Shown: positions 1,913-28,696 of the stretch, in pieces
How positions within the stretch are numbered: the first letter of the stretch is position 1
Layout: each line of letters starts with the position of its first letter
DNA from: an uncultured Mollicutes bacterium
GTDB taxonomy: Bacteria; Bacillota_I; Bacilli_A; Acholeplasmatales; Anaeroplasmataceae
NCBI GenBank assembly: GCA_945923475.1
Contig: CAMELE010000019.1
Coordinates: 1 to 37,796, forward strand
Reading direction: 5' to 3'
DNA length: 37,796 nucleotides
Position numbers and translations under genes: made by a program
Notes under the pieces: generated by a model
Database searches by the model: none
Told to the model about the DNA's origin: nothing
Seen by the model: only the letters and a program-made list of their open reading frames with translations

Positions 1913-1940
1913 TTTTTTAGAAGGATTGGAGGTAATAATC

Positions 1941-3023: not shown

Positions 3024-4238
3024 TTGTCTAGCGAAGGTAAACAATATTATTGCGAAAAATGTAATAAAACTATGGATGGAACTTAGTTTTATACATCTAA
3101 TAATTTAGATAAATATCCTAATGATGGTAAATTACCAAAATGTAAAAAATGTATAACAATGCATGTAGATAATTGGAATCCGGATACTTATCTATGGATA
3201 TTGCAAGAATGTGATGTTCCTTACATTCCTGAATAGTGGAATTAGTTAATGGGTAAATTTGCGAAGGATAAAACGAAAGTCACTGGAATGACAATATTAG
3301 GTCGTTATCTCTCTGCAATGAAATTAAATCAATGGAAAGATTATAGATGGAAAGATAGTCAGTTCTTGCAAGACTTACAAAATAAAAAAATAGAAGAAAC
3401 AATGAAGCAATAGGGATATGATATTCAAGATATTACTACTGCCATTCAACGTGCTTCATTTACTTTACCATCAGAAGAATTAAAAGAGCCGCCTCCTCCT
3501 GCGCCTCCCCCTTTAGATTTTGGGAATTCTACAGAAGATTATTTTAAAGATAAGTTAGATTTCGATGTTCCTGATTTAGGTGCTGAGCTGACAGATGAAG
3601 ATAAACGATATCTTTATTTAAAATGGGGAAAAGGTTATAGTCCTGACGAGTGGGTGCGTTTAGAGCAATTATTTAATGAAATGATGTAGTCTTATGATAT
3701 TTAGTCCGCAGGACATATTGATACATTAAAACTTGCTTGTAAGACATCATTAAAATCTAATTAGTTATTAGATATAGGTGATGTAGACGGCGCCCAAAAG
3801 ATGATTAAAATGTATGACTCTTTAATGAAATCGGGCAAATTTACTGCGGCTTAGAATAAAGAAGAATCTGGCGATTTTGTTGATTCTGTTGGTGAATTAA
3901 TAGAAATGTGTGAAAAACAAGGTTATATTGAAAGATATTATGTTGATACTCCAAATGATAAAGTAGATTTGACAATTAAAGATATGCAAAAATATACACG
4001 CACTTTAATTGAACGAGAAACTAATCTTGGCAATATGATTGATTAGGCATTAAAGCAAAACGCTAAAGAAGATGAAGAGGCTAAAGAAAACGTTGAAGAC
4101 ACAATCGTCGATGACGTTGATATGTCCATTGAAGACATTGAAAAAACTTTAGAAGATAAAGATATTGAAGACTTTAGCGAATTTTTGGATAATGAGATAG
4201 AGTTAGATATAGATGCTTTCTCTGATAGGGAAGATTAA
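3024..4238 (+). CDS. Probable terminase small subunit-like protein with N-terminal zinc knuckle
   Basis: A TTG start at 3024 has AAGGAG nine bases upstream; the frame ends at TAA, 404 residues, with nine TAG codons read as Gln. Residues 7-43 contain a Cys-x2-Cys ... Cys-x2-Cys knuckle (CEKCNK and CKKC), followed by MHVDNWNPDTYLWILQEC. A proline-rich linker (EPPPPAPPP) leads to a helical acidic C-terminal half ending in many Asp and Glu. The N-terminal pattern matches, from memory, proteins preceding TerL in Firmicute gut phages; such proteins are taken as small terminases that recognise DNA and hand it to TerL. The stop overlaps the TerL start (TAATG), so the two are translationally coupled. 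Function is likely but not proven. Confidence 0.7.
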
Positions 4239-5989
4239 TGGCGTTACAAGATTTACTTGATCTATCTACAAGTAGAAAAAAAATAGGTATTTCTGAAGAA
4301 CGTATTAATGCTGTAATGCCAGTCATTCGTAAATATACTGCCTTTTGGCGTGAATATCCAGATTTATTTGTTGATTTTTTAGTGCGAGGAACACGCACAG
4401 AATAGAAAGAAGGAGAATTTAAATTTTTCTTCTATTAGCGTGTTTTTTTAAGATGTGTAATGCGCTATCAATATGTTTATGCAGTTTTCCCTCGTGCTTA
4501 TTCTAAATCATTCTTATCAGTCATGGCATTAATGGTTAGATGTATTCTTTACCCTGGCGTTCATCTATTTGTTACTTCTGGAGGTAAGGAACAAGGTGCG
4601 AGTATTCTACATGATAAAGTTAATGAAATTTGTGATTTAATACCAAGTTTTAAACGCGAAATTGATTGGGGCCGAGGTAAGAGCCAAGAGAGTAAAGATA
4701 AAGTACGTTATGTCTTTAAGAATGGCTCTGTACTTGATAATTTAGCTGCAAGAGAAAGTACTCGTGGTTAGCGTCGTCATGGCGGCCTAATGGAAGAATG
4801 TGTAGGTATTGATGATTAGATTTTGCGTGAAGTTATTATACCAGTTATGGCTATTCCTCGTAGAGCTAAAGATGGTACGACTCATGAGGAGGAAGCAGTA
4901 AATAAATCATAGATTTATATTACTACTGCTGGCTATAAAAATACATATCCTTATGATAGATTAATTGGTTTATTAGTTCGTATGATTACATAGCCTGATA
5001 GATGTATGGTATTAGGTGGAACTTGGCGAACTCCTGTTGCTGTTGGATTACAACAGAAGACATTTATTACTGACCAGAAAAATGAAGGAACTTATAATGA
5101 AGCTTCTTTTGAACGTGAATATGAATCAATCTGGTCTGGCACTGTTGAAGACGCTTTCTTTAATGCAGAAATATTTAATAGGAATAGAATATTGAATTAG
5201 CCTGAATATGAAGCTTCTGGCCGTTCAAGTAAATTATCTTATTATATATTAAGTGTTGACGTAGGTCGTAAAGGATGCGATACTGTTGTCTGTGTATTTA
5301 AAGTAACGCCACAACCACATGGCGAGCCGATTAAAAGTTTAGTTAATATTTATACTATGAATGATACACATTTTGAAGACTAGGCTATTAAACTTAAAAA
5401 ATTATATTATAAATATAAAGCTCGAAGAATTGTAATAGATGCTAATGGACTTGGTGTTGGTTTAGTAGATTTTATGGTTAAGCCATAGATTAATCCTGAA
5501 ACTTCTGAAGTGATTCCTGATTTTGGAGTTTATGGTGGGACTCAGGATGATGCAGTTCAAGAATATAAAAAATATAAAACCAATAGTACAGAATTAGATG
5601 TATTATATTTAATGAAAGCTAATGCACCAATTAATACTGAAGCACATAGTATTACTTAGTCAGTGTTAAATTCTGGTAAGATTAAATTTTTAATTGATGA
5701 ACGAACTGCTAAATAGAAATTATTAACTACTAAAGTGGGTTAGAATATGACTACAGAAGCACGGTCTGATTATTTAAGACCATTTAGTTTAACTACTTCA
5801 TTGCGCGAAGAAATTATGAATCTGCGTGAAGAAAATGAAGGTTTAAATATAATTTTGAAACAAGCTAATAAAAGTATTAAAAAAGATAAATTTTCTGCAT
5901 TAGAGTATGGATTGTATTATATAAAAAAAGTAGAAGAAGATAAAAAGAAGAAAAAATTCCGGGCTGCTGATTGGATGTTTATGAATTAA
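4238..5989 (+). CDS. terL: Terminase large subunit
   Basis: A 583-residue protein once 12 TAG codons are read as Gln; the standard code would break it into more than ten pieces. It is the packaging motor: an N-terminal ATPase pumps DNA into the prohead and a C-terminal RNase H-like nuclease cuts concatemers. A Walker A-like loop lies at residues 85-91 (PRAYSKS) and a Walker B-like stretch at 183-187 (GLMEE). Nuclease acidic residues are visible at D341 (LSVDVG) and D401 (VIDANG). A TAG-encoded Gln falls at residue 178 (STRGQRRHG), just before Walker B. The start overlaps the preceding stop. Length is normal for the family. Confidence 0.95.
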
Positions 5990-6077: not shown

Positions 6078-6434
6078 ATGGATGCCAGTCGTGCGGAAAT
6101 TAAGATTAGAGAAATCTTAGAGGAAGCCGGCCTGAATTTTAAGATGGAATATATATTTCCAGATTTAAAAACACATAATGGTCGTCCTTTACGTTTTGAT
6201 TTTGTAATATTTGATGATGATAATAATATTGATTTTTTAATTGAATATCAAGGTAAATAGCATTATGAAGCCAGCAATAAATTTGGCGGAAAACGCGGAT
6301 TATACCAATAGCAATATAATGATAATCAAAAACGTAGATTCTGTGCTTTACATAATTTACATTTAATAGAAATTCCTTATACAGAAGAAAATTTAATTTC
6401 TTATGATTATATAATGCGAAAAGCTGGATATTAA
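6078..6434 (+). CDS. Homing-type nuclease, Vsr/PD-(D/E)XK-like fold
   Basis: A 118-residue protein starting at ATG 6078 with AAAGGAG upstream and ending at TAA; it has two TAG codons. The core reads RFDF (D41), IDFLIEYQGKQHY (E56, Q61, H62) and later LHNLHLIEIPY. This is the pattern of small phage nucleases related to Vsr and EDxHD homing endonucleases, whose usual motif is LIEYDGxQHY. The Gln of QHY is encoded by TAG (6258-6260), which is direct support for TAG = Gln. Such genes often move between phages and sit between packaging genes, as here between terL and portal. DNA cutting is inferred; target site unknown. Confidence 0.85.
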
Positions 6435-6451: not shown

Positions 6452-8137
6452 ATGGAATTAGAAAAGGAAGAATTAACCAGAAATGAATAGATACATAAAA
6501 AAGGTTTTGACATAACTGGAGGGACACGTGAATATTCTACAGTTGGCCCCAATGAATATAAAAAAATTAAAGTCGGTGTTAAGACATTAGATGATGCTGT
6601 TTTAAATCTTGGGTCTTTTAAATGGGATACTTATGGTCGCCGCAATGAAAAATATAGTCGTGAACGTATTTACACTAAGCCTATGGTTATGGATGCTTTA
6701 ATTCGTAATGATGTTCAAGAATTGCGAAGAATATCACGTTTCTTTTTTAGAGTAAGTGGTATTTATCAAAGAGTATGTAATTATTTTGCAAATATGTATC
6801 GTTATGATTGGGCTATTGCTATTTAGTCTAATAATACTGATGGTTCTGCTGTTAAAGATATTAATGAAACAAAAGCAGTAAAAGATTTCTGGCGAATTTT
6901 AAATTATTTAGATAATTCTTATATTAAGAAAATTTGTGGAGATATGGCTCTTGAAGTAATTAAATGTGGAGCTTATTATGCCTATATTGTTCCATCAAGT
7001 ACTGGCTTAATTCTATAGCAGCTTCCTATTGATTATTGCCGTTCGAGATATTCAGTAGGTAATTTACCTGCTATTGAATTTGATATGAGATATTTTGATA
7101 CTTTTGTGGATACTAATTATCGTAATAGAGTATTAAAATTATTCCCTGATGAATTTACAATAGGTTATCGTCTCTATAAAGCTGGTAAACTTTTACCTGA
7201 TGTAGCTGGTGATAATACTGGTAGTTGGTATTTATTAGATCCACAAAGCACTGTTAAATTTTCTTTAAATGGTACTAATGATATTCCATTATTTGTAAAT
7301 GCTATTCCTGCAATTTTAGATTTGGATGCTGCACAAGATTTAGACCGCCGCAAGCAAATGCAAAAATTGTTAAAAATTTTAGTTTAGAAATTACCGCTTG
7401 ATAAAAATGGTGATTTGATTTTTGATATTGATGAAGCTCGTGATATTCATAATAATGCTGTTGAAATGCTTCGTAGAGCAGTAGGTGTTGATGTATTAAC
7501 TACTTTTGCTGATGTAGATGCTATTGATACTTCTGATAAAAATACTTCTGCTACTACAGATGAATTAGAGCGTGTTGAACGAACTGTATATAATGCATTT
7601 GGCGTTTCGCGCAATTTGTTTAATACAGATGGTAATATCGCTCTAGAAAAGTCTATCTTAGATGATGAATCTACCATGCGTAATTTAATTTTGCAATTCA
7701 ACATATTTTTTGATAGAATATTATCAGTCCTGAATGTTTAGAAAAAATATAATTATAAATTCTATATGTTAGAAACTACATAGTATAATTATAAAGATTT
7801 ATCTAAGATGTATAAAGAGCAAACTTAGATTGGTTTCTCTAAAATGTTACCTTAGATTGCTCTTGGACAATCATAGAGTTTTATTCTTAATACAGCTCAT
7901 TTTGAAAACGAAGTTTTACATTTAAGTGAAATTATGATACCTCCTCTTATGAGTTCTACATTAAATGGTGAAGATATTTTGGGTAAAAAAGATTAGAATG
8001 GTTCTAACACTTCTCAAAATAAAACAAGTGGAAATGCTACTGTGAAAACAGAAACTAAAGAGGGTGGCCGACCAGAAAAAGCTAATGATGAAAAGAGTGA
8101 AAAAACAATCGCTAATCGTCAAGCTGCTGGTAAATAA
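6452..8137 (+). CDS. Portal protein
   Basis: A 561-residue protein from ATG 6452 to TAA 8137, with ten TAG codons read as Gln. It sits directly downstream of the terminase module, the usual portal position, and forms the dodecameric ring at the capsid vertex through which DNA passes. Visible features are the N-terminal IYTKPMVMDALIRNDV stretch, a central domain with VRNAFGVS-like text (VYNAFGVSRNLFNTDGN, typical of portals of Firmicute siphophages) and a polar C-terminal tail containing GGRPEKANDEKSEKTIANR. The ribosome site (GAAGGTGAAG) is modest. Spacing to the following gene is 12 bases. Confidence 0.9.
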
Positions 8138-9736: not shown

Positions 9737-10513
9737 ATGCTTTTAAAAGATATGCTTAAAGACCTAAGCGGCGTATCTGCTGTTAAGGGCGGCTACGTTG
9801 AATATGGCTATGGTCAGGTTGAGCCTAATCATTTAAGTGCTCAGCGCACTGGTCAGATTTATGCTCAATTACCTGCTAACAGAAATATCCAGCTTCTTGA
9901 AAATGGCCAGTTTGTTAAGTATGACTATGCTGCTGGTGAGCTTGGTGAAGTTAATTTCACTGGCAAGGGCGAATGGATGTTAGTTTATAATGAAATTAAA
10001 CTTTATCGTGAGGAACAAGCTGATTGCGAATTTGCTATGCGCAAAGATGATTATCAGGCTCGTTATTACAGCCCCTATGATGGCAAGCAGGAGATTGGTA
10101 CACGCTAGGCTCGTTATTTAAATGGTAAGGATGCCGAAGGTAATACTTCTATTACTATTACAGATAGCCAGGGTGTACAACATACTTATGAGTATGATGA
10201 TGTTACTGCTGGTCCTGATATTCGTGAACTCTTCTATGAAGAAGATCCTTTACATTTTGATGGTCCTTATGAGGCCCGTAGAATGCCTGCTGGCACTAAT
10301 ATGGTTCCTCGTGTTTTCAAGACCAATGTTGGTGATATTTTTACAACTAATACTATCGCAGAAGCCACTCTTGCAGTTGGCGATATTTTAAGTCCTCGTG
10401 CTGCTGATGGTATGCTTTCTAAATCTGGTGATGGCTCTATCCAATGGTAGGTTGTCAAGGTTTATGAAATGCCTGATCATCAGAAGGGCGTTAAGATTAT
10501 GCGAATCGCGTAA
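9737..10513 (+). CDS. Capsid-associated protein, probable decoration or head protein
   Basis: A 258-residue protein from ATG 9737 (AAGGAGG upstream) to TAA, with two TAG codons (10106-10108 and 10448-10450). It begins MLLKDMLKDLSGVSAVKGGY and is rich in Gly, Tyr and acidic residues without membrane segments. It lies between the scaffold and the major capsid gene, where head decoration or accessory proteins are usually encoded. Codon use is richer in CAG and GGC than in the packaging genes, suggesting high expression. Assignment rests on position; a head-fibre role is an alternative. Confidence 0.65.
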
Positions 10514-10530: not shown

Positions 10531-11667
10531 ATGTTAGATAGAAAAAATCTTGTTCAATTAATGAAGACTGTCGCTAAGGCTGATCCTTCTACTCCTACTG
10601 CTTACAGCTTTAATGGTGAAAGTCTTTCTTATGATGCTCTTAATGAAACTCTCCGCAGAGAATTAAATGAACTTGCTGGAACTTATTCTTTATACCGTGA
10701 AAATAAGAACCTTATTTTCTCAATGATTGAGGAAACTATTGATGAAGTTCTTCCTAAGAAAGTTGAAGAGCAATATAATCAGTTTGCTGAAGTTAAGACA
10801 TTTAGACAGGGCGACAAGCCTATTTTCCGTAGAAAGTTCAGCAACAATACTCGTGCAAAGCAATTCATCACTCGTGTCGGCCTAGCTGGCATCTATGAAG
10901 TATTCAAGCTTGGTAAGACTGAAGAAAGCTTTGAAGTCCGTACAAGTGCTATTGGCGGAGCTGCTCAGATTGGTTTTGAGGAATTCCTCGATGGTCGTGT
11001 CGATTTTGGTGTTGTCACCCAGATTGTCATGGAAGGTATGGATGAACTTATCTATAAAGAGATGGCTGGTGCTTTAAAGGCTTCTATCAACCAGCTACCT
11101 CCTGCTAACCGTTTAGTTGCTAATGGTTTTGATGAACCCGGTTTTGATAAGTTACTTATGATTGCTTCTGCTTATGGTACTCCTACTATTTATTGCACTT
11201 ATGAATTTGCTGTTCGTATGATTCCGAAGGATGCTTGGCGTTATACTGAAGCTATGAAAAATGAGCTTTGGAATACTGGTCGTCTTGCTTCCTATAAGGG
11301 CTATAAAGTTGTTATTCTTGAGCAGGGCTTTGAAGATGCTACTAATGAAAAGAAAGTTATCGACCCAGGTTATGCTTGGATTATTCCTACTGGTGCTGAT
11401 AGTAAGCCTATAAAGGTTGCTATGGAAGGCAATACCATTGTTGATGAATATACCAATTATGATCGTAGCCGTGAAATTCAGGTTTATAAGAAGGTTGGAG
11501 TTATTGCTATGTTAGCTAATAACATCTGCTGCTATTGTGATACTGAACTTCTTGGTGATATGAAGACATGGCATCTTGATGGTGTAACTGGTAAGGTCCG
11601 TGACTATGCTGGTCAGATTACTGGTTCTCATGATACTATTGATGGCGGTAATGAAGATAAGCCGTAA
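10531..11667 (+). CDS. Major capsid protein
   Basis: A 378-residue protein from ATG 10531 (AAAGGAG upstream) to TAA 11667. It follows protease/scaffold and is of the size and composition of an HK97-fold capsid protein: helical N-terminal region, a segment FRQGDKPIFRRKFSNNTRA resembling the extended E-loop area, and a mixed C-terminal domain. It forms the capsid shell. It has no TAG codon: all eleven Gln use CAG (eight) or CAA (three), unlike its neighbours. A strong terminator follows at 11703-11744. HK97 fold is inferred from context and pattern, not from a structural match. Confidence 0.88.
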   Translation: MLDRKNLVQLMKTVAKADPSTPTAYSFNGESLSYDALNETLRRELNELAGTYSLYRENKNLIFSMIEETIDEVLPKKVEEQYNQFAEVKTFRQGDKPIFRRKFSNNTRAKQFITRVGLAGIYEVFKLGKTEESFEVRTSAIGGAAQIGFEEFLDGRVDFGVVTQIVMEGMDELIYKEMAGALKASINQLPPANRLVANGFDEPGFDKLLMIASAYGTPTIYCTYEFAVRMIPKDAWRYTEAMKNELWNTGRLASYKGYKVVILEQGFEDATNEKKVIDPGYAWIIPTGADSKPIKVAMEGNTIVDEYTNYDRSREIQVYKKVGVIAMLANNICCYCDTELLGDMKTWHLDGVTGKVRDYAGQITGSHDTIDGGNEDKP

Positions 11668-11696
11668 TTGATATTAACTAAAAATTAATATATAAT
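11668..11696 (+). promoter_or_regulatory. Promoter-like sequence just after the capsid gene
   Basis: TTGATA (11668-11673), a 17-base spacer and TATAAT (11691-11696) begin at the base after the capsid stop codon. The predicted start, about 11703, is the first base of the terminator stem. It may yield a short hairpin RNA or a transcript that reads through into the neck genes; chance occurrence in AT-rich DNA is possible. Confidence 0.45.
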
Positions 11697-11702
11697 ATTT
11701 TT

Positions 11703-11744
11703 AGGGGAGAATGGGGAAATCCCCTTCTCCCCTATTTTGTTTTA
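11703..11744 (+). terminator. Strong intrinsic terminator after the major capsid gene
   Basis: AGGGGAGAAxGGGGA pairs with TCCCCxTTCTCCCCT (11703-11733), followed by ATTTTGTTTT. The G/C-rich stem is the strongest in the window and stands out in AT-rich surroundings. Confidence 0.9.
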
Positions 11745-11766
11745 TGAGTAAAAGGAGAATAAAATA

Positions 11767-12333
11767 ATGAATAAAAAAATTTTAATGGTTACTAATAGAA
11801 GTGCTGGAGTAGTTGTTTATAATATTCCTGAAGAAGGCATTCGCAGAGAATTTACACCTGGAGAAACTAAGAAGATTCCCTTTGAGGAATTAGAGAAGCT
11901 TGCCTATCTTAGCGGAGGCCGCACTTTAATGGAAAATTTCTTAAAGATTGTGGATACTGAAACTACAGAAGAATTAGGTATTCATACAGAACCTGAATAT
12001 TATTTAGATGACGCTGGAGTTATTAAGCTTCTTACTGAAGGAACTCTTGATGAATTCCTTGACTGTCTTGATTTTGCTCCTATTGGAGTTATTGATATGA
12101 TTAAGAGTTATGCTGTATCTCTTCCTATGAGTGATTACAATAAGCGTAAAGCTCTTAAGGATAAGACTGGATTTGATCTTGATCGAGCATTAGCCAATAA
12201 GGAAGCTGAAGCTGCAGATGATGAGCAAATTACTCCAAAAGCTCCTGAACGTAGAGTAAAGACCGAAACTAAGCCTACAACGCCTCCTGGCCGTAGAACT
12301 GCTCCTCGTTATAACGTTGTAAAAGAAGGTTAA
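11767..12333 (+). CDS. Neck/connector-region protein, family function unknown
   Basis: A 188-residue protein from ATG 11767 (AAAGGAG upstream) to TAA. The N-terminal part (MNKKILMVTNRSAGVVVYNI ...) looks like a small beta domain, followed by FTPGETKKIPFEELEKLAYL and a helical region (FLDCLDFAPIGVIDMIKSYA). The C-terminus is a basic, Pro- and Arg-rich tail. Proteins with this pattern are known to me from Firmicute phages right after the capsid gene, without an assigned role. It has no TAG codon, like the capsid gene before it. A head-tail joining or capsid-associated role is inferred from position. Confidence 0.65.
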   Translation: MNKKILMVTNRSAGVVVYNIPEEGIRREFTPGETKKIPFEELEKLAYLSGGRTLMENFLKIVDTETTEELGIHTEPEYYLDDAGVIKLLTEGTLDEFLDCLDFAPIGVIDMIKSYAVSLPMSDYNKRKALKDKTGFDLDRALANKEAEAADDEQITPKAPERRVKTETKPTTPPGRRTAPRYNVVKEG

Positions 12334-12355
12334 TTATAAATAAGGAGGGTTTTAT

Positions 12356-12967
12356 ATGACATATTTTTATAAGATTTATGAACGCTTTTTAGGTAAAGTA
12401 ACAGATGATATGTATTTAGAACTTACTCCTCGTGATACATTTTTAGATTTACGTCAATTACTTATTGATAGCATCCCTGGATTCGAATTTCCGCGTAAAC
12501 GATTAGATTATGTTTTAGTTGATGAAGATACTCCTGATTTTATAAAAGGAGAAATTGATGGTGGAAATATTGATATACCATTAGGTGGAGATTTATCTGA
12601 AGAAGTAACTGGCAGTAATATTGATATAGATAATGCTTTTTAGGAGATATTTTCTGAAGAAAATACCTCCTATTTTAATGCCGATTTGGATGATGAAGAA
12701 ATTAATATCTTGGCTTTGATTATGGTTGAAGCTTGGGTAGAACGTCAATTGGCATCTATTGAAGTAACAAGAATGAAATATTCTGGTACAGATTTTAAAT
12801 TTACTTCATAGGCGAATCATATGTAGAAATTGTTATCATTGAGAACAGAAGTAAGACGTTAGGCTTTTCATATGTAGAGATTATATAAGCGTCGTAAAAC
12901 TGATGATAATGGATATATTAAATCTAATTGGTCTGTTCTAAGGGAGGTAAGTGCCCTTGATGACTAA
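12356..12967 (+). CDS. Probable head-tail adaptor
   Basis: A 203-residue protein from ATG 12356 (AAGGAGG upstream) to TAA, with five TAG codons read as Gln. Without readthrough it would stop after 95 residues. The C-terminal half is a helical region containing EAWVERQLASIEVTRMKY and FTSQANHMQKLLSLRTEVRR, a helical-hairpin pattern seen in gp6-like connector adaptors that dock on the portal. The next gene starts within its last codons (ATG 12960). Role is inferred mainly from position and helical pattern. Confidence 0.65.
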
Positions 12968-13253
12968 ATATAATTTTGATATAGATAATAATTTAATTAA
13001 TACTAATATTAATAGATTAACTAATTAGATATGGAAATTAATTCCTATGCGTGAAAATGAAGAAGATTGGTTATCTTAGTTAAATACTGTAATTATTGAA
13101 TTAACTGGTCTTGGGCAAATTTTTAACGATAGCTAGTATTTAATTCTTTTAAGCAAATTAGAAGGACTAAAAAATATTGAAATTGAATTTCCTATTTATA
13201 GAAAGACAGTGTTTGAAGCTATTACTTTATTAAGGGGGCTTCACATTGAATAA
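12960..13253 (+). CDS. Small neck-region protein, function unknown
   Basis: A 97-residue protein from ATG 12960, overlapping the previous gene by 8 bases, with GGGAGG about 13 bases upstream and inside that gene. It carries three TAG codons and ends at TAA. The central text IPMRENEEDWLSQLNTVIIE and the C-terminal FPIYRKTVFEAITLLRGL suggest a compact helical protein. I have seen similar proteins at this place in Firmicute phages but know no function. It overlaps the next gene by 8 bases as well, indicating tight translational coupling of the neck genes. Confidence 0.65.
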
Positions 13254-14241
13254 AAATGAATATTTAGATGCAATGTATAATCGTATTCCAAAAGCCAATA
13301 TGCTTACAAGATATCTATATGGTGATGGAGTAACAGGTCAACAAGAACGAATGATAAGAGATAAACGTAAAACATTAAGTAGAGCTTTACTTTATTCTTA
13401 TCAAGCTGCTTTGGTAAAAAAATTATATGATGATAAAGATACTATCGAACGCCGTGCATTAATTAATCCTGATAAAATAAAATAGGATTATGATGAAAAA
13501 ATTATTTCAATTGGGTTTGAAAGTAATTTTAAGACTGGAGATATTTTTTAGTGGCTGGGTACAAATACTTATTGGTTAATTTATTTATAGGATTTAACTG
13601 AATTAGCTTATTTTCGTGGTAATATAAGACGTTGTTCTTATGAAATTGCCTGGGAAGATGAAAATAAAAATTATCATAAAACTTATGTTGCTTTGCGTGG
13701 TCCTGTTGAAACTAAAATTAATTATATCCAAAAGCATGAAATTAGTGTAGATACACCCAATCATTCTTTAAATATATTATTACCTTATAATGATGATAAT
13801 GTAAAATTATGTCAACGTTATAATAAATTTTATTTATAGAATGATCCCAACAAAACATGTTGGCGTATTGAAGCTACTGACTTATATTCTACTCCTGGGA
13901 TAATTGAAATTAATGCTGTTGAATATTATTCTAATGAAACTGCTGATGATATTGATAATGGTATTGTCAATGGTTTAATATAGCCAATTCAAGATCCTAA
14001 TTAGGGTAAAGAAAATGGTATTATAGGTGATACTTTTATTAAGCCAAAAGTAGTATATGAATATAAGTATGATGGAATTAAATCTGGCAAATGGACTTGG
14101 GATAAGAAATTACCATTAACAGTTAAAGTAAATGAAGAAACAAATACTTTAAAATTACGATGGGAAACTACATATTGTGGTTAGTTTGATTTATTCTATG
14201 GGCCAGAATGTAAAACTATTGTAGTTGAATCTTTATTTTAA
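13246..14241 (+). CDS. Head-closure/neck-region structural protein, function not established
   Basis: A 331-residue protein from TTG 13246 (AGGGGG upstream) to TAA, with seven TAG codons. The N-terminal 80 residues are helical and basic (NMLTRYLYGDGVTGQQERM), followed by a mainly beta part rich in Tyr, Trp and Asn. The start lies inside the end of the preceding gene. The protein sits where head-completion (stopper) or connector proteins are encoded, but I cannot match a named family. The TTG start is chosen because it alone has a ribosome site near and no good ATG lies close by. Confidence 0.65.
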
Positions 14242-14262
14242 AGATGAAGGAGAAATCGGAGA

Positions 14263-14853
14263 ATGAAAATTGATAATGTAAAAAATCCAGAGTCAGCATT
14301 TTTAGCCCAAGAAAAAGATATGAGAATTATAGTTGATCGTATGGCCGCGAATCAACGCTTGCGTAAATTACTTTATTACACTACCCCTGATGCACTAAAA
14401 AGACCAGAAGTAAGTGATTAGAATTTCGTAAAAATGTTTGGCAAGAATATAAGGAATTTACCAAAATTATATATAGATAAAGATGTTTTAAATTATATTG
14501 TTATTAGTTTTGATAATTTTACTCCTAATGGAGATAATCCTGAATTTAGGGATAATACTATTGAATTTGATATTATTTGTCACTATGATTAGTGGCAATT
14601 GGCAGATTCATTTTAGTTAAGACCTTATAGAATTGCTGCTGAACTTGATAGTATGTTAGATAAAAAACATTTAACTGGAATTGGGCAACTTAATTTCGTC
14701 GGAGCATAGCAAATTATATTAACTGATGAATTTGCTGGACTTTGTTTATTATATGATACAATACACGGAGGAGAAGATAAAAAATATATGCCAAATCCTG
14801 CTGATGAACAAATGTTTATCGAGGATTATTTTAAAATGCCTAAAATGAATTGA
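14263..14853 (+). CDS. Neck or tail-completion protein candidate
   Basis: A 196-residue protein from ATG 14263 (AAGGAG ten bases upstream) to TGA, with four TAG codons. The use of TGA as stop, overlapping the next ATG (TGATG), shows that TGA still terminates. The text NYIVISFDNFTPNGDNPEF and IEFDIICHYDQWQL, then RPYRIAAELDSMLDKKHLTG, resembles tail-terminator or neck proteins that have a small alpha/beta fold. Position before the tail tube gene agrees with a tail-terminator. Assignment is tentative. Confidence 0.6.
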
Positions 14854-15587
14854 TGGATTATAAACTTAGTTTAATGTGCGGAACAGATTTACCTGTTCCA
14901 GAAATTCCATTAACTCTTCATTAGCCTAAGATAAAGGAAATAGCATTAATTGGCGAAAAAGAATTTTTTACTGGTGCTCAGTGTCTTTGTATTAATAAAA
15001 ATAGTATAACAAATCAGGACAAGAATGATTTGGATACTACTACCAATTTTTAGATATTTATGATGGTAATGTTATAGAAAGATAATAGCGAACGCCGTAA
15101 AGCTACGCAATAGGTTCTATCATTACTATTCCCAAATTCAAAGTCTACATTTACTCCTAGATCTATTGTTATTTAGTATAATGAGAGTGACATTTAGATT
15201 AATATTGATAATGATAACTTTGAATTATTTTAGTAGGTAGCAAGACAAATTTTTTGTTTTGATACTAATAAAAATGGGCAAGATAATTATAATCCTGCTA
15301 ATAAAAAAGCTCAAGAAATAGCTAATAAATTAATGAAAGGGCGTCAAAGGGTCGCTGAACTTAAAGGGGTTACCGATTCAAGCATTTTGAGCCAATACGT
15401 TTCTACATTGACTATTGGATTAGATTCAATGTCATTAGAAGATTGTATGAATTTAACATTGTATTAGTTATACGATTTAATAGAAAGATTTTCTCTTTAT
15501 ACCAATTGGGATATTGATGTAAGGAGTAGATTAGCAGGAGCTAAGTCAGATAAAAAACCTGACAATTGGATGAAAAACATTCATTAA
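14853..15587 (+). CDS. Tail-region protein of a Firmicute phage family, function unknown
   Basis: A 244-residue protein from ATG 14853, sharing bases with the preceding TGA, to TAA. It has nine TAG codons, including two in a row (TAGTAG, Gln-Gln, near 15234). The C-terminal third, MSLEDCMNLTLYQLYDLIER then NWDIDVRSRLAGA and PDNWMKNIH, is a pattern I recognise from tail regions of Firmicute phages; TAG falls at the Gln of LYQLYDL. Role unknown; a tail assembly factor is possible. A 79-base gap with a palindrome separates it from the tail tube gene. Confidence 0.65.
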
Positions 15588-15630
15588 TTTTGTATAAATC
15601 GCTTTACTAATTTTTGTAGCGAGTTATATA

Positions 15631-15650
15631 AATAAAATTTAAATTTTATT
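15631..15650. repeat. 20-bp perfect palindrome in front of the tail tube ribosome site
   Basis: AATAAAATTT is followed directly by AAATTTTATT, ending one base before AAGGAGG (15651-15657) of the tail tube gene. It may be a DNA-binding site or an mRNA 5' stability element; a weak stem (TCGCT/AGCGA) lies just upstream. Confidence 0.6.
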
Positions 15651-15666
15651 AAGGAGGAAATAACCT

Positions 15667-16764
15667 ATGAAATTTGGTGTTCGTGAAATATGCGATGTCG
15701 TATTAAAAGCTCGTGCTCCTATGAAGGTTGGTAATAAAGTTTTCTATGCGAACGAACCAGTTCTTTATTTCGATACATTAAAGACTTCTAGTCTTGAAGG
15801 TGCTTCTACGACCGTATATGCACAAGGCGGACGCGGCAATGCTCGTTTAGTAGCTTGGGATGGCGACCGTACTTTAACATTCACTATGGAAGATGCTCTT
15901 ATTTCTGCTGAAGGTTTCATGATTCTTTCTGGTGCTGGCTTAATTGATGCTACAGCTAGTAACACTATTAAGCAACACGTGACTGAGAAGACTAATGCTG
16001 TTGTCTTAGCTGAAAACAAAAAGAGTGTTCAGATTTATACTACTAATTTACCTTATGAATATATTTCTAAGGATGGCAAGCGTGATGGTGAATACTACAT
16101 CTATGCTATGTTAGTTGATAATGATGAACCTGTTACTGAACCTTATTTACCTACTGTAATGCGTACTGGTACTAAACCTAAGAAATTCCGTTATAATGAA
16201 GATACTAAGGCATATGAAGAATTAGCTAGTGATGAAGCTGTTACTGAGGCTCAGAATAAGGGCGAAACTATTTATTATGGTCTTGAGATTAAGACTATAA
16301 CTGAAAATGCTGATAATAATATTAAGGCTTATACTCTTGCTGATGGTAAGACTGATGATGATCCTCATAAGCTTGCTAAATTTGAGAATGGTGTTGTTCT
16401 TCTTGACTATTATGTTGAAAAAGCAAGCAAGGCTAAGCAGATTGAAATTACTGCTGAATCCTTCGGTGGTAACTTCTATCTTGAAGCTTCTACCTTATTC
16501 CGTACTCAAGATGGCGTTGATCTTCCTGCTGAGTTTATAATTCCTAACTGCAAGATTCAGTCTAACTTTACTTTTAGTATGGCTGCGACTGGCGATCCTT
16601 CAACTTTCACTTTCACTCTTGACGCATTCCCTGGAACTACTCGTTTCAATCCTACTAAGAAAGTTCTTGCGGCTATCCAGATTATCGAGGAAATCACCGA
16701 TGCTTCTATGTATCGCACTCAGACTATCCACGATTCTAAGCATGATAGCTACTTTGATATTTAA
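15667..16764 (+). CDS. Major tail (tube) protein
   Basis: A 365-residue protein from ATG 15667 (AAGGAGG ten bases upstream) to TAA. The N-terminal text FDTLKTSSLEGASTTVYAQG and LVAWDGDRTLTFTMEDALIS is typical of major tail proteins of long-tailed Firmicute phages, which stack as hexamers around the tape measure. The C-terminal part (CKIQSNFTFSMAATGDPSTF) fits the tube beta-sandwich. Like the capsid protein it has no TAG codon, and six of nine Gln are CAG. No sheath gene is seen next to it, supporting a non-contractile tail. A terminator follows after one small gene. Confidence 0.85.
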   Translation: MKFGVREICDVVLKARAPMKVGNKVFYANEPVLYFDTLKTSSLEGASTTVYAQGGRGNARLVAWDGDRTLTFTMEDALISAEGFMILSGAGLIDATASNTIKQHVTEKTNAVVLAENKKSVQIYTTNLPYEYISKDGKRDGEYYIYAMLVDNDEPVTEPYLPTVMRTGTKPKKFRYNEDTKAYEELASDEAVTEAQNKGETIYYGLEIKTITENADNNIKAYTLADGKTDDDPHKLAKFENGVVLLDYYVEKASKAKQIEITAESFGGNFYLEASTLFRTQDGVDLPAEFIIPNCKIQSNFTFSMAATGDPSTFTFTLDAFPGTTRFNPTKKVLAAIQIIEEITDASMYRTQTIHDSKHDSYFDI

Positions 16765-16766
16765 TT

Positions 16767-16925
16767 ATGATTATTAATTCTCGCGCCCCTCGTCCTGAGA
16801 AGGCTTATGAAGATAAAGTTGTAGTTGAAGAATCAAAGAAGGAAACCAAAGCTACTGTAAAAACTAAAGAGGCTCCTCTCACTGAAGATGAGCTTATTAA
16901 TAAAATTATCAAAGGAGAGGGTTAA
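16767..16925 (+). CDS. Small charged protein behind the tail tube gene
   Basis: A 52-residue protein from ATG 16767, two bases after the tail tube stop, to TAA. There is no ribosome site of its own, so it is probably translated by coupling to the tail tube gene. It begins MIINSRAPRPEKAYEDKVVV and is rich in Lys and Glu, with a helical C-terminus (LTEDELINKIIK). No TAG codon. The stop codon lies in the loop of the terminator hairpin. Too short to assign; it may be a tail tube accessory protein. Confidence 0.6.
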   Translation: MIINSRAPRPEKAYEDKVVVEESKKETKATVKTKEAPLTEDELINKIIKGEG

Positions 16926-16943
16926 TCCCTCTCCTTTTTTTTA
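16911..16943 (+). terminator. Intrinsic terminator after the tail tube transcription unit
   Basis: AAAGGAGAGGG (16911-16921) pairs with CCCTCTCCTTT (16927-16937), then a T run to about 16942. The stop codon of the small gene lies in the loop, so coding sequence and terminator overlap. Confidence 0.9.
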
Positions 16944-18903: not shown

Positions 18904-18963
18904 ATTCCTAAATTAAATAGGAATATGTAAAAGGTATGAGGATATTCCTCATACCTTTTTTTA
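18904..18963 (+). terminator. Double hairpin and terminator between chaperone and tape measure genes
   Basis: A first 7-bp stem (ATTCCTA/TAGGAAT, 18904-18924) is followed by a perfect 14-bp stem, AAAAGGTATGAGGA with TCCTCATACCTTTT (18929-18959), ending in a T run. It should end the chaperone transcript and reduce transcription into the tape measure gene. Confidence 0.85.
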
Positions 18964-19000
18964 ATTATATAAATAGGAATTGAGAGAAAGGAGAAAATAT

Positions 19001-22000
19001 ATGGCTAAAAATAGTGCCCAATATGATGTAAGACTTGCCTTTTCAGCGGATGTGGCTTAGGCAAGATAGCAATTAAAAAGTTTACAAGATGAATTAAGTA
19101 AACTTAGTACATTAAAAAATGTAAATGTTGGAACTCGTTTAACGAAAGAGTTAGAGCAAGCTTCTTTAAAAGCTGCTGATTTAAAAGTAATGCTTGAAAA
19201 AGCAACTGATATTAATACAGGCAAGTTAAATCTAACTTCTTTCTCTAATTAGCTAACTAAAAATGGAGAAAGTTTATCTACTTACAGAAAAGCTTTAAGT
19301 GCTTTAGGACCCCAAGGTGAAGAAGCTTTCTTATAGTTAACATAGAGTGTAATTACTGCAGATGCAGCATTAACCACAAGTAGTAAAAAATTAAATGAAC
19401 TTAAAAAGACATTAGCTAATACTGTTAGATGGTAGATTTCTTCTAGTATGATGCATAGTTTTATTGGTGGCATTGAAACTGCTTATAATTATGCTAAAGA
19501 TTTGGATAGAGCTTTAACTGATATTAAAATTGTCACTGAAGATAGCACTGGAGCAATGGCGAATTTTGCTGAAAGAGCTAATAAAGCAGCATAGGCTTTA
19601 AGTACTACGACTAAAGATTATGCTTAGGCTTCTTTAATTTATTATCAATAGGGTTTAAATGATAAAGAAGTAGAAGCGAGAACTGCTGTTACTATTAAAA
19701 TGGCTAATGCAGCGGGTGAAAGTGCTTCTAAAGTATCTGATTAGTTAACTGCTGTTTGGAATAACTTCTATGATGGTAGCAAATCTCTTGAATATTATGC
19801 AGATGTAATGACTAAACTTGGTGCATATACTGCTTCTAGCACTGATGAAATCTCAGAAGGTATATAGAAATTCGCATCTGTTGCTAATACTATTGGTCTT
19901 AGTTATGAATATGCTACATCTGCATTAGCTACGTTAACTGCTAAAACACGTGAAAGTGCGAATACAGTAGGTAATAGCCTTAAAACCTTATTTGCACGTA
20001 TTTAGGGTCTTACTCTTGGAGAGACTCTTGAAGATGGTACTAATTTAAATAAATATTCTAAAGCCCTTGAAAAAGTTGGTATTAGTATTAAAGACCAATA
20101 GGGCGAATTAAAAGATATGAATACTATCCTTGATGAAATGATGAATAAATGGGATAGCTTAAGTCGTGCTGAAAAAATGGCTCTTGCATAGACAGTCGGT
20201 GGTGTTCGTCAATATACTCAATTAGTTAATCTTATGGAAAATAAAGATTATTTTAAAGAGTTGGTTGGAGTAGCTAAAAATTCTGAAGGTACATTAAATG
20301 AACAAGCTAATATTTTTGCTGATAGTTGGGAAGGTGCTCGTAAAAGAGTACAAGCAGCTGCTGAAGGTATTTATGATAGTTTGATTGATGAAGAATTTTT
20401 TAAAGATGTTGATAATATTGTTACTGTTGTATTAAATGGTATTAATGCTACTATTAAAGGCCTAGGTGGAGTTAAAGGTGTTCTAAGTAATATTGGAGCT
20501 TTAGTTACTACAATTTATAGAAAAGAAATATCTCAAGGATTAAATACTTTTGGAGATATGATAATGAATTTAACTCCAAAGGGTAAAGCTATAATACAAA
20601 TGCGTCGTCAAGATGCTTTAAATCAATAGAAAAAAGTATATGAAAATTTTTCTGAAATTGGTGAAAATTCTTCAACTCCTTGGAATCCAAGTAGTTATTA
20701 GAATAATGCTCGGTATGAAAAGTATGCGAATATAGCTCAAGTAGAATAGCAAATTTTAGATATTTCTAAAGATTTAACTGAAGAAGAAAAAAAGCAGGCT
20801 AGTAATTATGTAGATATTTTAAATGCTATGCAAGAAAGAAGAGTTCTTGCCGGATAGCAATTAGATCAAAGTAGAGATCAATTTAGATAGTCTGAATTAA
20901 ATTTAGCATTTGCTATGAGAAATAATCCAGGAAATCGGAGTTATGATCAAGTAACAAAAGATATAAATCGTATTTCTTAGGCTGGTATTGTTTTTGAAAA
21001 TGTTGCTCAAATTAATAATTTGGCAAAAACAACACTTGGAGTAAGAACTGGTGAAGAATTTAATAAAGAAAATCAACAATCCAGGATAAAAGATATAGAT
21101 AAATTAATAGCATCTTTAAATCAACTTGAATCTTTAGGAAAAAATAGTAATTTTAATTTCTTAAATAAAAATAATACAGAATAGATAAACTAGTTAAATG
21201 AATTATTAAAAGATTTATAGCAAATAAAAAAAGCTTTAGATGAAGGAAAAGTTTCAGCTGAAGATTATAATAAAGCTTTGGAAAAAATAAAAGGATTTAC
21301 AACAAAAGCTTTAAACGGTGAAGATACAAAGGATAAAAACGGGCAAACTCATCATGTGGCCGGAGCTGCTGAACAATATAATAATGAATTAATAAAAGTT
21401 AATCAAGGTTATGAAAATGTAGGACAACAAGTTAATGCTGCTGCTGCGAATGCTAATAATTTTGCAGCATAGTTATTAAAGGTAGAGCAAGAAGCTAAAA
21501 ATGCTGAAAGTTAGTTAGAGCTAATGAAAAATGCCATCAATGAGTTCAATACTAGGGCTGCTACTACTGGAGAAATAATTACTAGCGTTAGCACAAGTTT
21601 GATGAGTTTCAGTGCTATAGCCAACGGATTTTAGGGAATTAGTAGTGTTATCACTAATGATAATTTATCAGGTTGGGAAAAGGTTTTAGGATTTATCAAT
21701 AGTGGAATAATGATACTTCCTAATTTTATTAATTTATATAATCAATTAACTAAAGTTATTAAATCTAAAACTATATCTTAGCAGGCTGAAAATTTAATTT
21801 CTAATTTAACAAATAATAATACAGACAAAGAAATAAAAGGAATAGCTGGAAAAATTGTCGTAAAAATTCAAGAAAGAATGGCCCATTAGGGAAATACAGG
21901 AGCTATGATAGCTGAGACTGTTGCTGCGACTAGCCTATAGGCTGTTACCGCCGGCCTTACTTTAGGTATTACTCTTCTAGCTGCTGGCATAGGATTAGCG

Positions 22001-25000
22001 ACATAGGCTCATAAAAATCATATAGAAAAATTAAATGAAGCAGCTGAAAAAAGTAGAGACTATTCTGAAACTTTAAAATCTGAAGTAGATGCTAATAAAG
22101 AATTAATTAATAAATATAATGAATTATTAGAAACTTATTAGAAGAGTGATAAAGGCAAATCAGAGTTACGAGAAACTACCCTTGAACTTTGTTAGAGTTT
22201 AGGAATTGAAGATGCAGCTTTATTAACTTTACAAGAAGAATATGAAGCTTTAACAAGCAAAATAAAAGAAGCTAATAAAGCTAAAACTGAGAGTTCTTTA
22301 TATGCTACTTAGCAAGCTATTAAAGATACATACCGTGCTGGTGTTTCTGAAGATAGCTATAATAAATATATTGTTGGTCAAGGAGCTTTTAAGGTATATA
22401 GCGGGTCTAAAAATAAATAGACTTAGTCTTTTGAAAAAGAATTATTGTCTGAAAACCCAGAAGTAATTGGATGGGATGATATGACTCGTATTTCTAGTTC
22501 ACAGGATTTTGTTAATTTATATGAAAAAGCTAATTAGATGTACTAGCTTTCGTTAGAAAAGGCTAGTAAAGAAAGCATTAATACCGATGATATTTCATAT
22601 ATTAAAAAATTAAATAATTTTTTGACTGATACAAAAGACTTTTATGAAAATATTAAAGGATTATTTAATACAGAAGATAATTTAATATTAGATGTTGCTT
22701 GGAATGAAATTGATACTGATAAAATTGAAACATTAAAAGAGTATGCTACTTTTTTAAAAGAGTTTAAATAGAATACATCTGATTTAAATACTGATGATCC
22801 AGAAGGACTTATAAATAGTTATTTATTTGGAAAAGAGGGAATTAGTGATTTTGCTACTTAGTATGCCGCTTTAGCAGAATGGCTAAAGAATACTAATTTT
22901 AAATCAGTTATAACTCCTGAAGATATAATTAATAATTTTTCTGAAGAAGATATTGAATTACTTTTAAAATTAAGAACTGAAGCCGTTGGAATTATTACAG
23001 GAGATAACTGGCAATCAGCATTAAATGATTTACTTAATCTTTCTTAGAAAATTATTGATAATAAACCTTTAGAATTTAATGTTTCTTTGGCTAAGACAGC
23101 TAAAGAAAAATTAAAAAAGGATATGGATGCCACTGATTGGCCGAAATATTTTAAAGAAGTAGAAATTCCTTGGGGGACTAATGGCTGGGTAAGTCAACAT
23201 GGTTTTTAGTCTATGACTGACAATCAAAGACAATAGTATTTATCTTAGAAACAAGCTGAAGAAGAATAGCAAAATTATTAGAATATAAAGGATAAAGATA
23301 GTTGGGTTGATACTTAGAATACTATTTATGATGAACTGATAGCTAAAAATAAAGAGTAGCTTGAATAGATAACCAGTCAAGCTCCAACTGAAGAAAAGAT
23401 TTAGTAGGCTTAGGCTGTTATTGATAATGAACAAATGAGATAGTCTCATTTAGATAGTTTAAATGTAGCTCAAACCATGTTTGATGAAATTGCTAAACAA
23501 TTAGGATTAGAGAATGAGAATAATATTTAGGAAGCATTAAATAAAGAAAATCCATCTGTTGAACTTGTAAATGCTTATAATATTTTATAGTCTTAGAAAG
23601 CCTTAGTCGCTAGAGATAATCAAAATTTAGCTAATGCTTAGAATATTTTAGATATATCAGAAAATTATGATTAGATGGTCGCTGATTTAGAACATTATGG
23701 GGAATCATTGGCTTCTGAAAAAGATAATCTTGAAAATACTTATAATTCAATAATACAAGATTTTGAAAATAGTCGTAGTTAGGTGTTATCTGAATTAAAT
23801 TTACAAAATTTAGATATTGGAGATACTATTAGTGCTTCGGCTTATTCTACATTAGAATCTTTTGGCATCCACGTTAATGAATATTTTTCTGAAATGGATG
23901 ATGGTACTTATAAATTAATTGCGAAAGCTTAGGAATTAAATAAAATTTTAGGTATAAAATCTATTGAAAATGCTTATAATGCTGCCGATAATTTTACGAA
24001 TTTTATTAAGGATAATAATTAGAATAAGCGTTATAATTATCTTCAAGGGAAGACTCCTGAAGAATTACGAGATACTATTTTAAGGTAGGCTAATCAAGTA
24101 ACAAATAATGGTATTCCTACATCTTGGACAACTGATTATAAAAAATCCTGGATTAGAGCTGCTGGATTAAACGTTGAAGAATATAATGATAAATTAGATG
24201 AAGGTGTTGTTGAAGCTGCTAAGCATTATCAAGAATTAATTAATAATGGTAATTATCAAATTGATGTTACAGTTCTTAATTCTGATAATATGCTTGATTT
24301 AAATAAGAATGCTAAAGCAGCTGGTATTGATACCACTGATAAACGCTATACAGATGCTATGGTTAATATGGCTTCTGAAGCAGGCATAGAATATGATGCC
24401 ACTGTAACTGCTGTTATTGATGCTCAATCAAAGTATGATGAAGCTATTAATGAATATGGAGAGGATTCAGAATTAGCGAAAAAAGCCGCCGAAGATTTAG
24501 GAAAAGCTTAGGAGAATTTGGCTAAAAATATTCGTACTATTTAGTTTTATAAAGCAACAGAAGATTTAGCTAATTATATGAAAACTTTAAAAACTACCAA
24601 AGATAATACTGAAAAAATGACTACGGCTACTAAAGCGGCAGAAGCCATTAGCAAGGCTTTTGGTAAAACAGTTAATTCTTCTTTTGTCCTAGATAAAGAA
24701 AATTAGAAATTAATTGATAAATTAATTAATGGTACTCAAAAACAAAGAAATGAAGCAGCATATAAAATTGATTTAAAAATTAATAATACAGAATTCACAA
24801 ATGATGTAGAAGATGCAATAGAAGATGCTTCAGGAAAAGCAGGAGAAGAAATAAATAAGTCTTTTGCAACTCAATTTGAATAGGTAGATTTGAGTGAGTC
24901 TATAACCAATGGCATGGAACAAGGAGTTCAAACTGGCGCCGATGCAGTAAGAGCTACAATAAATAGCTTAAATGGATTAACTTTTAATACTGATGGTTCG

Positions 25001-28000: not shown

Positions 28001-28696
28001 GCTTTAAATGATGCAGGAATACCTGTACCAAGAACTTCAGCACAAGGCTATAGAGATATGTCTAAAGCAATTAAAGAAAGCAGTGTTAAGCCAGGAGATC
28101 TGGTATTTTTTGGTTATGGTAATACCGTAGACCACGTTGGTATTTATGCTGGCAATGGATAGATGATAGATGCTCCTGGAGCCAAGGTTCAATATACTAA
28201 TATTGATGAAAAACGAGATAGACTTCTTGGATATGGTAGACTTGGTAATACAAATTATTCTTCTAGTGATACTGCGGCTTTAATGGATAGACTAGGGTTA
28301 TCTAGAAGAGGCGGAGCAGCCTCTGGAGCCTATACTGGTGATTGGGGACCCGGTTAGGGCATAGGTATTGATAATGGTAAGATTATTAAAGTTCATCCAA
28401 AAGAGTTGATACTTAATAAATCTGATACTAGAAATATACTTCGTGCAGTTGATATTGTTCGTAATATGAATGATTGGGTAGATAAATAGGTTTAGTAGAT
28501 GTCTAGTATAAGCTCTTCTAAATTAGATAGTTTATTTAATTCTGCTATCCCAAGATATGAAACTCAACCTATTAAATAGGAAGTTACTATCCAAGCTGAT
28601 TTCCCAGGAGTAACTGACCATTATGAAATTGAAGAAGCATTATCTAATCTTAGCAATAATGCTGCTCAATATATAAGTGCAAATAGATCTAAATGA
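19001..28696 (+). CDS. Tape measure protein with NlpC/P60 peptidoglycan peptidase
   Basis: A 3,231-residue protein from ATG 19001 (AAAGGAG upstream) to TGA, containing about 100 TAG codons, the first at codons 20 and 23. It sets tail length and aids DNA entry. A TP901-type tape measure core lies near residues 165-370 (LDRALTDIKIVTEDSTG). A hydrophobic segment is at about 975-1000. Long helical/coiled-coil stretches, notably about 2110-2850, are joined by Gly linkers near 2107 (SGGGGGSS) and 2860. An NlpC/P60 domain spans about 2958-3080, with catalytic Cys2994 (LDCSGL) and His3045 (DHVGIY). The peptidase would cut host cell wall at infection. This is very long for the family. Confidence 0.95.

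What the first reader, a model, noticed from the sequence alone, without database searches (positions are those of the whole stretch)
10531..16925. The major capsid and tail tube genes contain no TAG, unlike most late genes
The capsid gene (378 codons, 11 Gln), its follower at 11767 (188 codons), the tail tube gene (365 codons, 9 Gln) and the 52-codon gene after it have zero TAG, while genes between and around them have 2 to 13 each and the tape measure about 100. In the capsid and tube genes CAG dominates (14 of 20 Gln). This suggests selection against slow suppressor decoding in the most abundant proteins, or a mechanism that makes them before suppression is established.
Basis: partly seen in the sequence, partly recalled or inferred. 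Interest (0 to 1): 0.75.

Follow-up and report, generated by a model that had tools for sequence, protein, structure and literature searches.

The report
Stop-codon-free genes for abundant virion proteins
This phage reads the stop codon TAG as glutamine in most of its virion genes but leaves it out of its capsid and tail-tube genes, and the same holds in two unrelated groups of such phages, most simply because TAG is a poor codon that selection removes from proteins made in bulk.

Summary
The counts are right. MCP 10531-11667 has TAG/CAA/CAG 0/3/8 and the tail-tube gene 15667-16764 has 0/3/6, against 227 TAG among all 505 Gln codons of 20 genes. Chance gives two such genes with P = 4e-5. The other two TAG-free genes say nothing: one has 1 Gln, the other none. 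In 12 non-duplicate recoded phages MCP has 1 TAG of 147 Gln codons and tube 3 of 123; most other late genes run 21-63%. Two other groups agree: crAss-like phages (MCP 5 of 797, a second virion gene 6 of 274) and Lak-C1 (2 of 27), though other Lak loci lack power or bias. MCP and tube also shift codons for Lys, Arg, Leu, Phe, Asn and Cys, and standard-code relatives keep CAG there too. Across five recoded genomes TAG use falls as a Gln-free codon index rises (rho -0.47 to -0.54), although my first index gave nothing. Terminator-like hairpins follow MCP and tube in part of the relatives. Best reading: translational selection against TAG in the most abundant proteins. Early, suppressor-independent synthesis is weaker. 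Expression was not measured; the tube's identity rests on gene order.

The parts
10531..11667 (+). Major capsid protein gene; TAG/CAA/CAG 0/3/8; AAG and CGT rich
   Evidence: PHROG 4088, unknown function. AlphaFold2 model, mean pLDDT 68; the 50 Foldseek rows listed are HK97-fold shells (phage capsids, encapsulins, gene transfer agents), best E 8e-8.
15667..16764 (+). Probable tail tube gene; TAG/CAA/CAG 0/3/6; same codon bias
   Evidence: PHROG 2729, virion structural protein. Upstream of two small genes and the tape measure, as in Enterococcus phage VRE9_2. Fold model poor, pLDDT 46.6; no match by sequence profile in the PDB.
9737..10513 (+). Gene before MCP, CAG-rich (2/4/9); in 12 recoded phages TAG is 11 of 148 Gln
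   Evidence: PHROG 35301, unknown.
11767..12333 (+). Gene after MCP, one Gln here; in 12 recoded phages TAG is 1 of 71 Gln
   Evidence: PHROG 30998, unknown.
16767..16925 (+). 52-codon gene without any Gln; uninformative for TAG
11702..11733 (+). Hairpin with T-rich tail after MCP, terminator-like
   Evidence: RNA fold of 11690-11745: -26 kcal/mol, z -4.3, 0 of 200 shuffles as good.
16911..16937 (+). Terminator-like hairpin closing the tube plus 52-codon unit
   Evidence: fold z -5.3.
18929..18959 (+). Terminator-like hairpin before the tape measure gene
   Evidence: fold z -7.0.
4238..5989 (+). Terminase large subunit, contrast gene, 12/8/3
6452..8137 (+). Portal, contrast gene, 10/11/1
18980..28696 (+). 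Tape measure (by size and place), contrast gene, 99/100/11

Best explanation
The phage belongs to a code-15 lineage that reads TAG as glutamine in late genes. TAG works there but is a poor codon. In the shell and tube proteins, needed in hundreds of copies per virion, translational selection keeps the preferred codons for most amino acids: for glutamine it keeps CAG, tolerates some CAA and removes TAG. In proteins needed in few copies (terminase, portal, tape measure, fibres) CAG has drifted to TAG by C-to-T change. Shown here: the counts, their recurrence, the wider codon bias, its independence from recoding. Inferred: that MCP and tube are the most expressed genes, and that the cost of TAG is slow decoding or occasional termination times abundance.
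For: (1) Window: P 4e-5. (2) Twelve non-duplicate recoded phages: MCP 1/34/112, tube 3/45/75, other late genes TAG 21-63% except g9737 (7%) and g11767 (1%). By alignment column, against repeated counting of inherited codons: TAG in 4 of 78 Gln columns of MCP+tube and 294 of 544 of 11 other genes. (3) C-to-T turns CAG into TAG, so genes richest in CAG should gain most TAG under mutation alone; they have least. (4) MCP+tube avoid GGG, CGG, CGA, AAA, ATA, TTT and prefer AAG, CGT, TTC, TGC, AAC; CAG is the strongest enrichment and TAG the second strongest avoidance. (5) Standard-code relatives have CAG-rich MCP and tube (L022: 0/1/13 and 0/0/12). (6) A Gln-free codon index trained on two such relatives predicts TAG fraction over 17 gene families (rho -0.81; -0.73 without MCP and tube) and over all ORFs with at least 6 Gln in five recoded genomes (rho -0.47 to -0.54). 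(7) Other groups: crAss-like, 51 dereplicated loci, MCP 5/29/763, second gene 6/15/253, TerL 169/279/109; Lak-C1 MCP 2/2/23 against 151/179/89 in its other ORFs of the stretch, P 0.001. In crAss001 the MCP and an auxiliary protein have nine copies each per asymmetric unit (PMC10172136, passages). (8) My terminator script finds hairpins after MCP in 8 of 14 and tube in 6 of 15 relatives, and 0 of 15 after each of nine other genes.
Against: No expression data. The first codon index (CAI) showed no relation to TAG fraction among TAG-bearing ORFs in any of five genomes. In the MAG that holds the window, EF-G, EF-Tu, S7 and S12 use CAA 52 of 52, so the Gln preference of MCP is opposite to this presumed host's. 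Lak relatives L219 and L220 have an MCP with 1/28/0 and no codon bias; L217 and L218 give P 0.17. In crAss-like phages TAG is avoided no more than CAA (odds ratio 0.75, P 0.53), and only 19 of 51 loci reach P < 0.05 singly. Some TAG-free, CAG-rich ORFs elsewhere have no known abundance.
Confidence: 0.78

Rival explanations
1. Timing or insulation: MCP and tube must be made before, or without, the suppressor tRNA, so TAG is excluded to free them from the code switch.
For: TAG-free genes can be translated without the suppressor. Terminator-like hairpins suggest partly separate transcripts for MCP and tube. The library's papers describe TAG as rare outside late genes (PMC6784885, PMC9523058, passages).
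Against: g9737 and MCP directly follow TAG-rich portal and g8150 with about 17-24 bases between genes and no terminator found after portal, g8150 or g9737 in 15 of 15 relatives. Timing does not predict the non-Gln codon bias nor its presence in standard-code relatives.
Confidence: 0.1
2. Truncation poison: a fraction of ribosomes stop at TAG, and truncated shell or tube subunits would spoil assembly, so TAG is removed from proteins that polymerise.
For: MCP and tube polymerise. The few TAG seen lie anywhere in the genes, so the codon itself can be read there.
Against: Portal, also an oligomer, keeps 10 TAG of 22 Gln. Codon bias at sites that cannot truncate is not explained. It may add to the main cause.
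Confidence: 0.12
3. Selection only for CAG: CAG is simply the best codon and TAG is no worse than any other non-preferred codon.
For: In crAss-like phages TAG and CAA are avoided alike (log2 odds -4.1 and -4.4).
Against: In the window's family TAG is avoided about 16 times more than CAA (4 TAG: 79 CAA in MCP+tube against 902: 1112 elsewhere, P 1e-15; counts inherited among relatives).
Confidence: 0.25
4. Recent import of MCP and tube from standard-code phages.
For: Nothing specific; no gene trees were built.
Against: The genes are syntenic and orthologous in all recoded relatives read, with MCP identity 62-98% to the window, and the pattern recurs in crAss-like phages and Lak-C1.
Confidence: 0.02
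5. Chance.
For: Two of the four TAG-free genes are uninformative.
Against: P 4e-5 in the window alone and recurrence.
Confidence: 0.001

Closest known systems
phAss-1 and relatives (code-15 Caudoviricetes; OQ749652, PMC10607447)
   Same: Homologous MCP (49% identity) and tube in the same order, in-frame TAG in other late genes, suppressor tRNA-CTA genes. MCP 0/0/15, tube 0/2/12. In the passages seen, that paper says that of four signature proteins TerL and tape measure contain TAG.
   Different: Weaker recoding: portal 1/20/13, P 0.03 for the contrast. The passages seen do not remark on or explain the TAG-free MCP.
Enterococcus phage VRE9_2 / EF1 group
   Same: Gene-for-gene order from portal to tape measure; MCP and tube biased to CGT and TTC.
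   Different: Standard code; prefers CAA (MCP 6 CAA:1 CAG, tube 8:0) and AAA.
Recoded crAss-like phages (Suoliviridae)
   Same: TAG in TerL and portal, almost none in MCP and one further virion gene, CAG about 95% there.
   Different: Unrelated capsid family (Pfam Crass_capsid); CAA avoided as strongly as TAG. The second gene is only probably the crAss001 gp36 homologue (BLASTP E 3e-4 for one member, none for another; hhalign probability 8%).
Lak megaphage C1 (MK250029)
   Same: MCP 2/2/23 and AAG-rich among TAG-rich genes.
   Different: T4-type MCP (Gp23); other Lak loci fetched do not show it clearly.
Codon bias of highly expressed genes in bacteria and phages (general knowledge)
   Same: Bias across many amino acids, strongest in abundant proteins.
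   Different: Here one of the disfavoured synonymous codons is a reassigned stop codon.

Membership tests
Code-15 (TAG = Gln) phages | In-frame TAG in conserved late genes | tested here: met
   TerL 12, portal 10, tape measure 99 TAG; families found by reading TAG as Gln.
Code-15 (TAG = Gln) phages | Suppressor tRNA with CTA anticodon | tested here: inconclusive
   None in the window, a fragment. Present in relatives C1, G002, G011, G006 and phAss-1, not in the parts read of standard-code G012.
Code-15 (TAG = Gln) phages | TAG decoded as glutamine | not tested
   Taken from the phAss-1 paper (PMC10607447, passages) and metaproteomics of crAss-like phages (PMC9523058, passages).
Translational selection on codons of abundant proteins | Bias over several amino acids beyond base composition | tested here: met
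   T-ending four-fold codons and G-ending Lys and Gln are both favoured in MCP+tube.
Translational selection on codons of abundant proteins | Graded relation between TAG use and codon bias | tested here: met
   rho -0.81 over 17 gene families, -0.47 to -0.54 in five genomes; the earlier CAI gave no relation.
Translational selection on codons of abundant proteins | Preferred codons match those of the host's highly expressed genes | tested here: inconclusive
   Match for AAG, CGT and TTC; opposite for Gln (host CAA 52 of 52). The MAG may not be the host.
Translational selection on codons of abundant proteins | Measured high expression | not testable with these tools
   No expression data held.
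HK97-fold major capsid protein | Fold | tested here: met
   moderate model quality.
Tail tube protein | Fold | tested here: inconclusive
   Model pLDDT 46.6; gene order only.

The most novel reading that the evidence does not exclude
Code-15 phages keep a suppressor-independent core of bulk assembly proteins (shell, tube and, in one relative, a vault-like protein), so the code switch does not gate production of bulk parts but only the scarce parts that complete and release the virion (terminase, portal, tape measure, fibres). Recoding would then act on completion of the particle and not on structural proteins as a class.
Probability: 0.15. Interest if true: 0.8.

Novelty: new variant of a known kind. 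Interest (0 to 1): 0.57.

Why it matters
Published models, as quoted in the papers read (PMC9523058, PMC10879173, passages), hold that stop-codon recoding delays structural and lysis genes. If the most abundant structural proteins are free of the recoded codon in several lineages, that delay cannot act on them directly, and the TAG fraction of a gene may serve as a proxy for how much protein a recoded phage makes from it. It also sets a bound: a tape measure with 99 TAG codons could hardly be made if each TAG lost more than a few percent of ribosomes (at 5% loss 0.6% would finish, arithmetic only).

Tried and rejected
Codon adaptation index with weights relative to the best codon: no relation to TAG fraction among TAG-bearing ORFs in five genomes, because it follows base composition; replaced by the ratio of high to low genes in standard-code relatives. 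Both are reported. I chose the second after seeing the first.

The standard-code training set is L006 and L022. L006 has 4 TAG in its TerL match and 1 in portal, so it may be weakly recoded.

The column 'host other' includes one ORF read on the wrong strand; its TAG share there is an artefact and is not used.

Origin of the suppressor tRNA from the Gln-CTG tRNA: aligned; no clear parent, not pursued.

Tube fold and PDB sequence search: no support. Pfam on MCP and tube: nothing over cut-off.

Rows dropped before counts: for the 12 recoded phages I left out L005, L010, L011, L013, L019 and L096 as near-duplicates of kept loci, L006, L014-L017 and L022 as standard code, and counted phAss-1 apart. 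For the crAss set, 75 of 80 loci were called recoded by coding density; with four named records 79, of which 78 had MCP and 51 remained after dereplication with at least 4 genes.

Papers: the key paper on recoding in phages (Nat Microbiol 2022, 10.1038/s41564-022-01128-6) is not held and was not seen, so I cannot say that the TAG-free MCP is unreported. Searches listed no paper whose title or abstract start states it. Cook et al. (PMC11210395, passages) report MCP found in 407 of 715 code-15 genomes with table 11 and 475 with table 15, which fits MCP genes mostly intact under the standard code.
Full report
Observation. The window is contig C19 of a metagenome-assembled bacterial genome and is a fragment of a phage late region. 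Read with TAG as Gln, 20 genes hold 505 Gln codons: 227 TAG, 45 CAG and the rest CAA. MCP has 0/3/8 (TAG/CAA/CAG) and tube 0/3/6. Terminase has 12/8/3, portal 10/11/1 and tape measure 99/100/11. Permutation gives P = 4e-5 for two or more genes with at least nine Gln and no TAG.

What the genes are. The protein of 10531-11667 matches a PHROG of unknown function, but its predicted fold (pLDDT 68) finds phage capsids and encapsulins in all 50 rows listed, so it is an HK97-type capsid protein. The protein of 15667-16764 is a virion structural protein by PHROG, followed by two small genes and the tape measure, which is the usual place of a tail tube. Its fold model is too poor to confirm this. Enterococcus phage VRE9_2, with the standard code, has the same gene order from portal to tape measure.

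Relatives. A scan of IMG/VR with the MCP gave 20 loci, a scan of GTDB genomes gave two, and the same MAG holds a second phage, contig C1 of 163,874 bases. In 12 non-duplicate recoded phages, the window included and three of them close relatives (window, L003, L008), pooled counts are MCP 1/34/112, tube 3/45/75, gene 9737 11/32/105 and gene 11767 1/40/30; the 13 other families run from 21% to 63% TAG. All 12 single-phage Fisher tests of MCP+tube give P of 0.0023 or less; phAss-1, weakly recoded, gives 0.03. By alignment columns, which does not count an inherited codon twice, TAG occurs in 4 of 78 Gln columns of MCP+tube and 294 of 544 of eleven other genes.

Not only Gln. MCP and tube use AAG for Lys (73% against 16% elsewhere in the window), CGT for Arg (76 against 37), CTT for Leu (55 against 17), TTC for Phe (53 against 17) and almost none of AGG, CGA, CGG, GGG. 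Four-fold boxes end in T and Lys and Gln end in G, so base composition is not the cause. Standard-code relatives share the CAG-rich MCP and tube. Preference for CAG therefore does not come from recoding; what recoding added is a third Gln codon, which spread by C-to-T change everywhere except where codons are under selection. In this family TAG is avoided about 16 times more than CAA in MCP+tube.

Graded relation. I trained a codon index without Gln on two relatives (MCP+tube against other late genes) and applied it to recoded phages. Over 17 gene families the rank correlation with TAG fraction is -0.81, -0.73 without MCP and tube, and -0.59 (P 0.035) without the four lowest. Over all ORFs with at least six Gln in five recoded genomes (G005, G002, C1, G011, phAss-1) it is -0.47, -0.54, -0.49, -0.49, -0.54. 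An earlier index, a plain CAI, showed nothing within TAG-bearing ORFs; the second was chosen after that, which weakens this line.

Other recoded groups. In crAss-like phages the MCP has 5 TAG of 797 Gln codons, a further virion gene 6 of 274, portal 271 of 2008 and terminase 169 of 557, in 51 dereplicated loci. The further gene is probably the auxiliary capsid protein by place, but sequence comparison with crAss001 gp36 is weak. In the crAss001 structure, MCP gp32 and auxiliary gp36 have nine copies each per asymmetric unit (PMC10172136, passages). Here TAG is avoided as much as CAA and not more. Lak-C1, a T4-type megaphage, has MCP 2/2/23 beside TAG-rich genes. Four further Lak loci do not add support: two give P 0.17, two have an MCP without codon bias and with 1/28/0.

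Transcription anatomy. A script for hairpins with T tails within 130 bases of each stop found them after MCP in 8 of 14 phages, after tube in 6 of 15, after the last small gene before the tape measure in 12 of 13, and 0 of 15 after each of nine other genes (no shuffle control for this script). The window's own hairpins after MCP and after the tube plus 52-codon unit fold far better than shuffles. Such terminators fit stepped, high output of MCP and tube. They also allow separate transcripts, so the timing rival is not excluded by anatomy alone.

tRNAs. Recoded relatives G002, G011, G006, C1 and phAss-1 carry CTA suppressor tRNAs; the standard-code relative G012 has Gln tRNAs for both CAA and CAG and no CTA in the parts read. 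phAss-1 has all three kinds.

What does not fit. The MAG's EF-G, EF-Tu, S7 and S12 use CAA 52 of 52 although the phage's MCP prefers CAG; either the MAG is not the host, or a phage tRNA changes the preference, or something else is at work. VRE9_2 prefers CAA in MCP and tube, so the favoured Gln codon differs between phages of this order of genes.

Verdict. It is best explained by translational selection in the most abundant virion proteins, in which the reassigned stop codon behaves as a poor synonymous codon. The mechanism of its cost (slow decoding, termination) and actual expression remain untested, and prior notice in a paper I could not read is possible.

Noticed in passing
L102:3045-5492 (recoded relative G002): An 816-codon gene matches the major vault protein shoulder (PF11978, E 1e-22) and a vault repeat (PF17795), with TAG/CAA/CAG 0/0/27. 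A scan of IMG/VR gave 60 loci with relatives; in 31 loci whose neighbours hold TAG, the ORF of 804-838 codons (24 loci, duplicates among them) has no TAG in 24 of 24; in the other 7 the script picked another ORF length. One literature search listed no paper.
   Followed up: partly
L102:8718-10271 and L058:25511-26872: A PHROG 850 RNA-binding protein (DUF2828, DUF7788) is TAG-free and AAG-rich both in G002 (0/0/15) and in the unrelated Lak-C1 (0/3/7).
   Followed up: no
L064:4735-6117 and L103:2-982: SPFH/Band 7 and flotillin-like phage genes, also CAG-rich and TAG-free (0/1/20 and 0/2/17).
   Followed up: no
G000 contigs C1 and C19: One bacterial MAG holds two different recoded phages of this family; a named MAG (Clostridium sp. 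SUG910) also holds two contigs of it.
   Followed up: no
window 1884-3005: Sigma-factor-like gene (PHROG 5767) with an HNH or zinc-finger-like C-terminal match, before the late region; only 1 TAG of 11 Gln.
   Followed up: no
window 6078-6434: HNH homing endonuclease gene between terminase and portal.
   Followed up: no
window 11668-11696: Best promoter-like match of the scanned stretch (11 of 12) starts right after the MCP stop; the total number of matches in the scan equals the shuffles.
   Followed up: no
L059:1783-6113: The MAG's EF-G, EF-Tu, S7 and S12 genes use CAA for all 52 Gln.
   Followed up: partly
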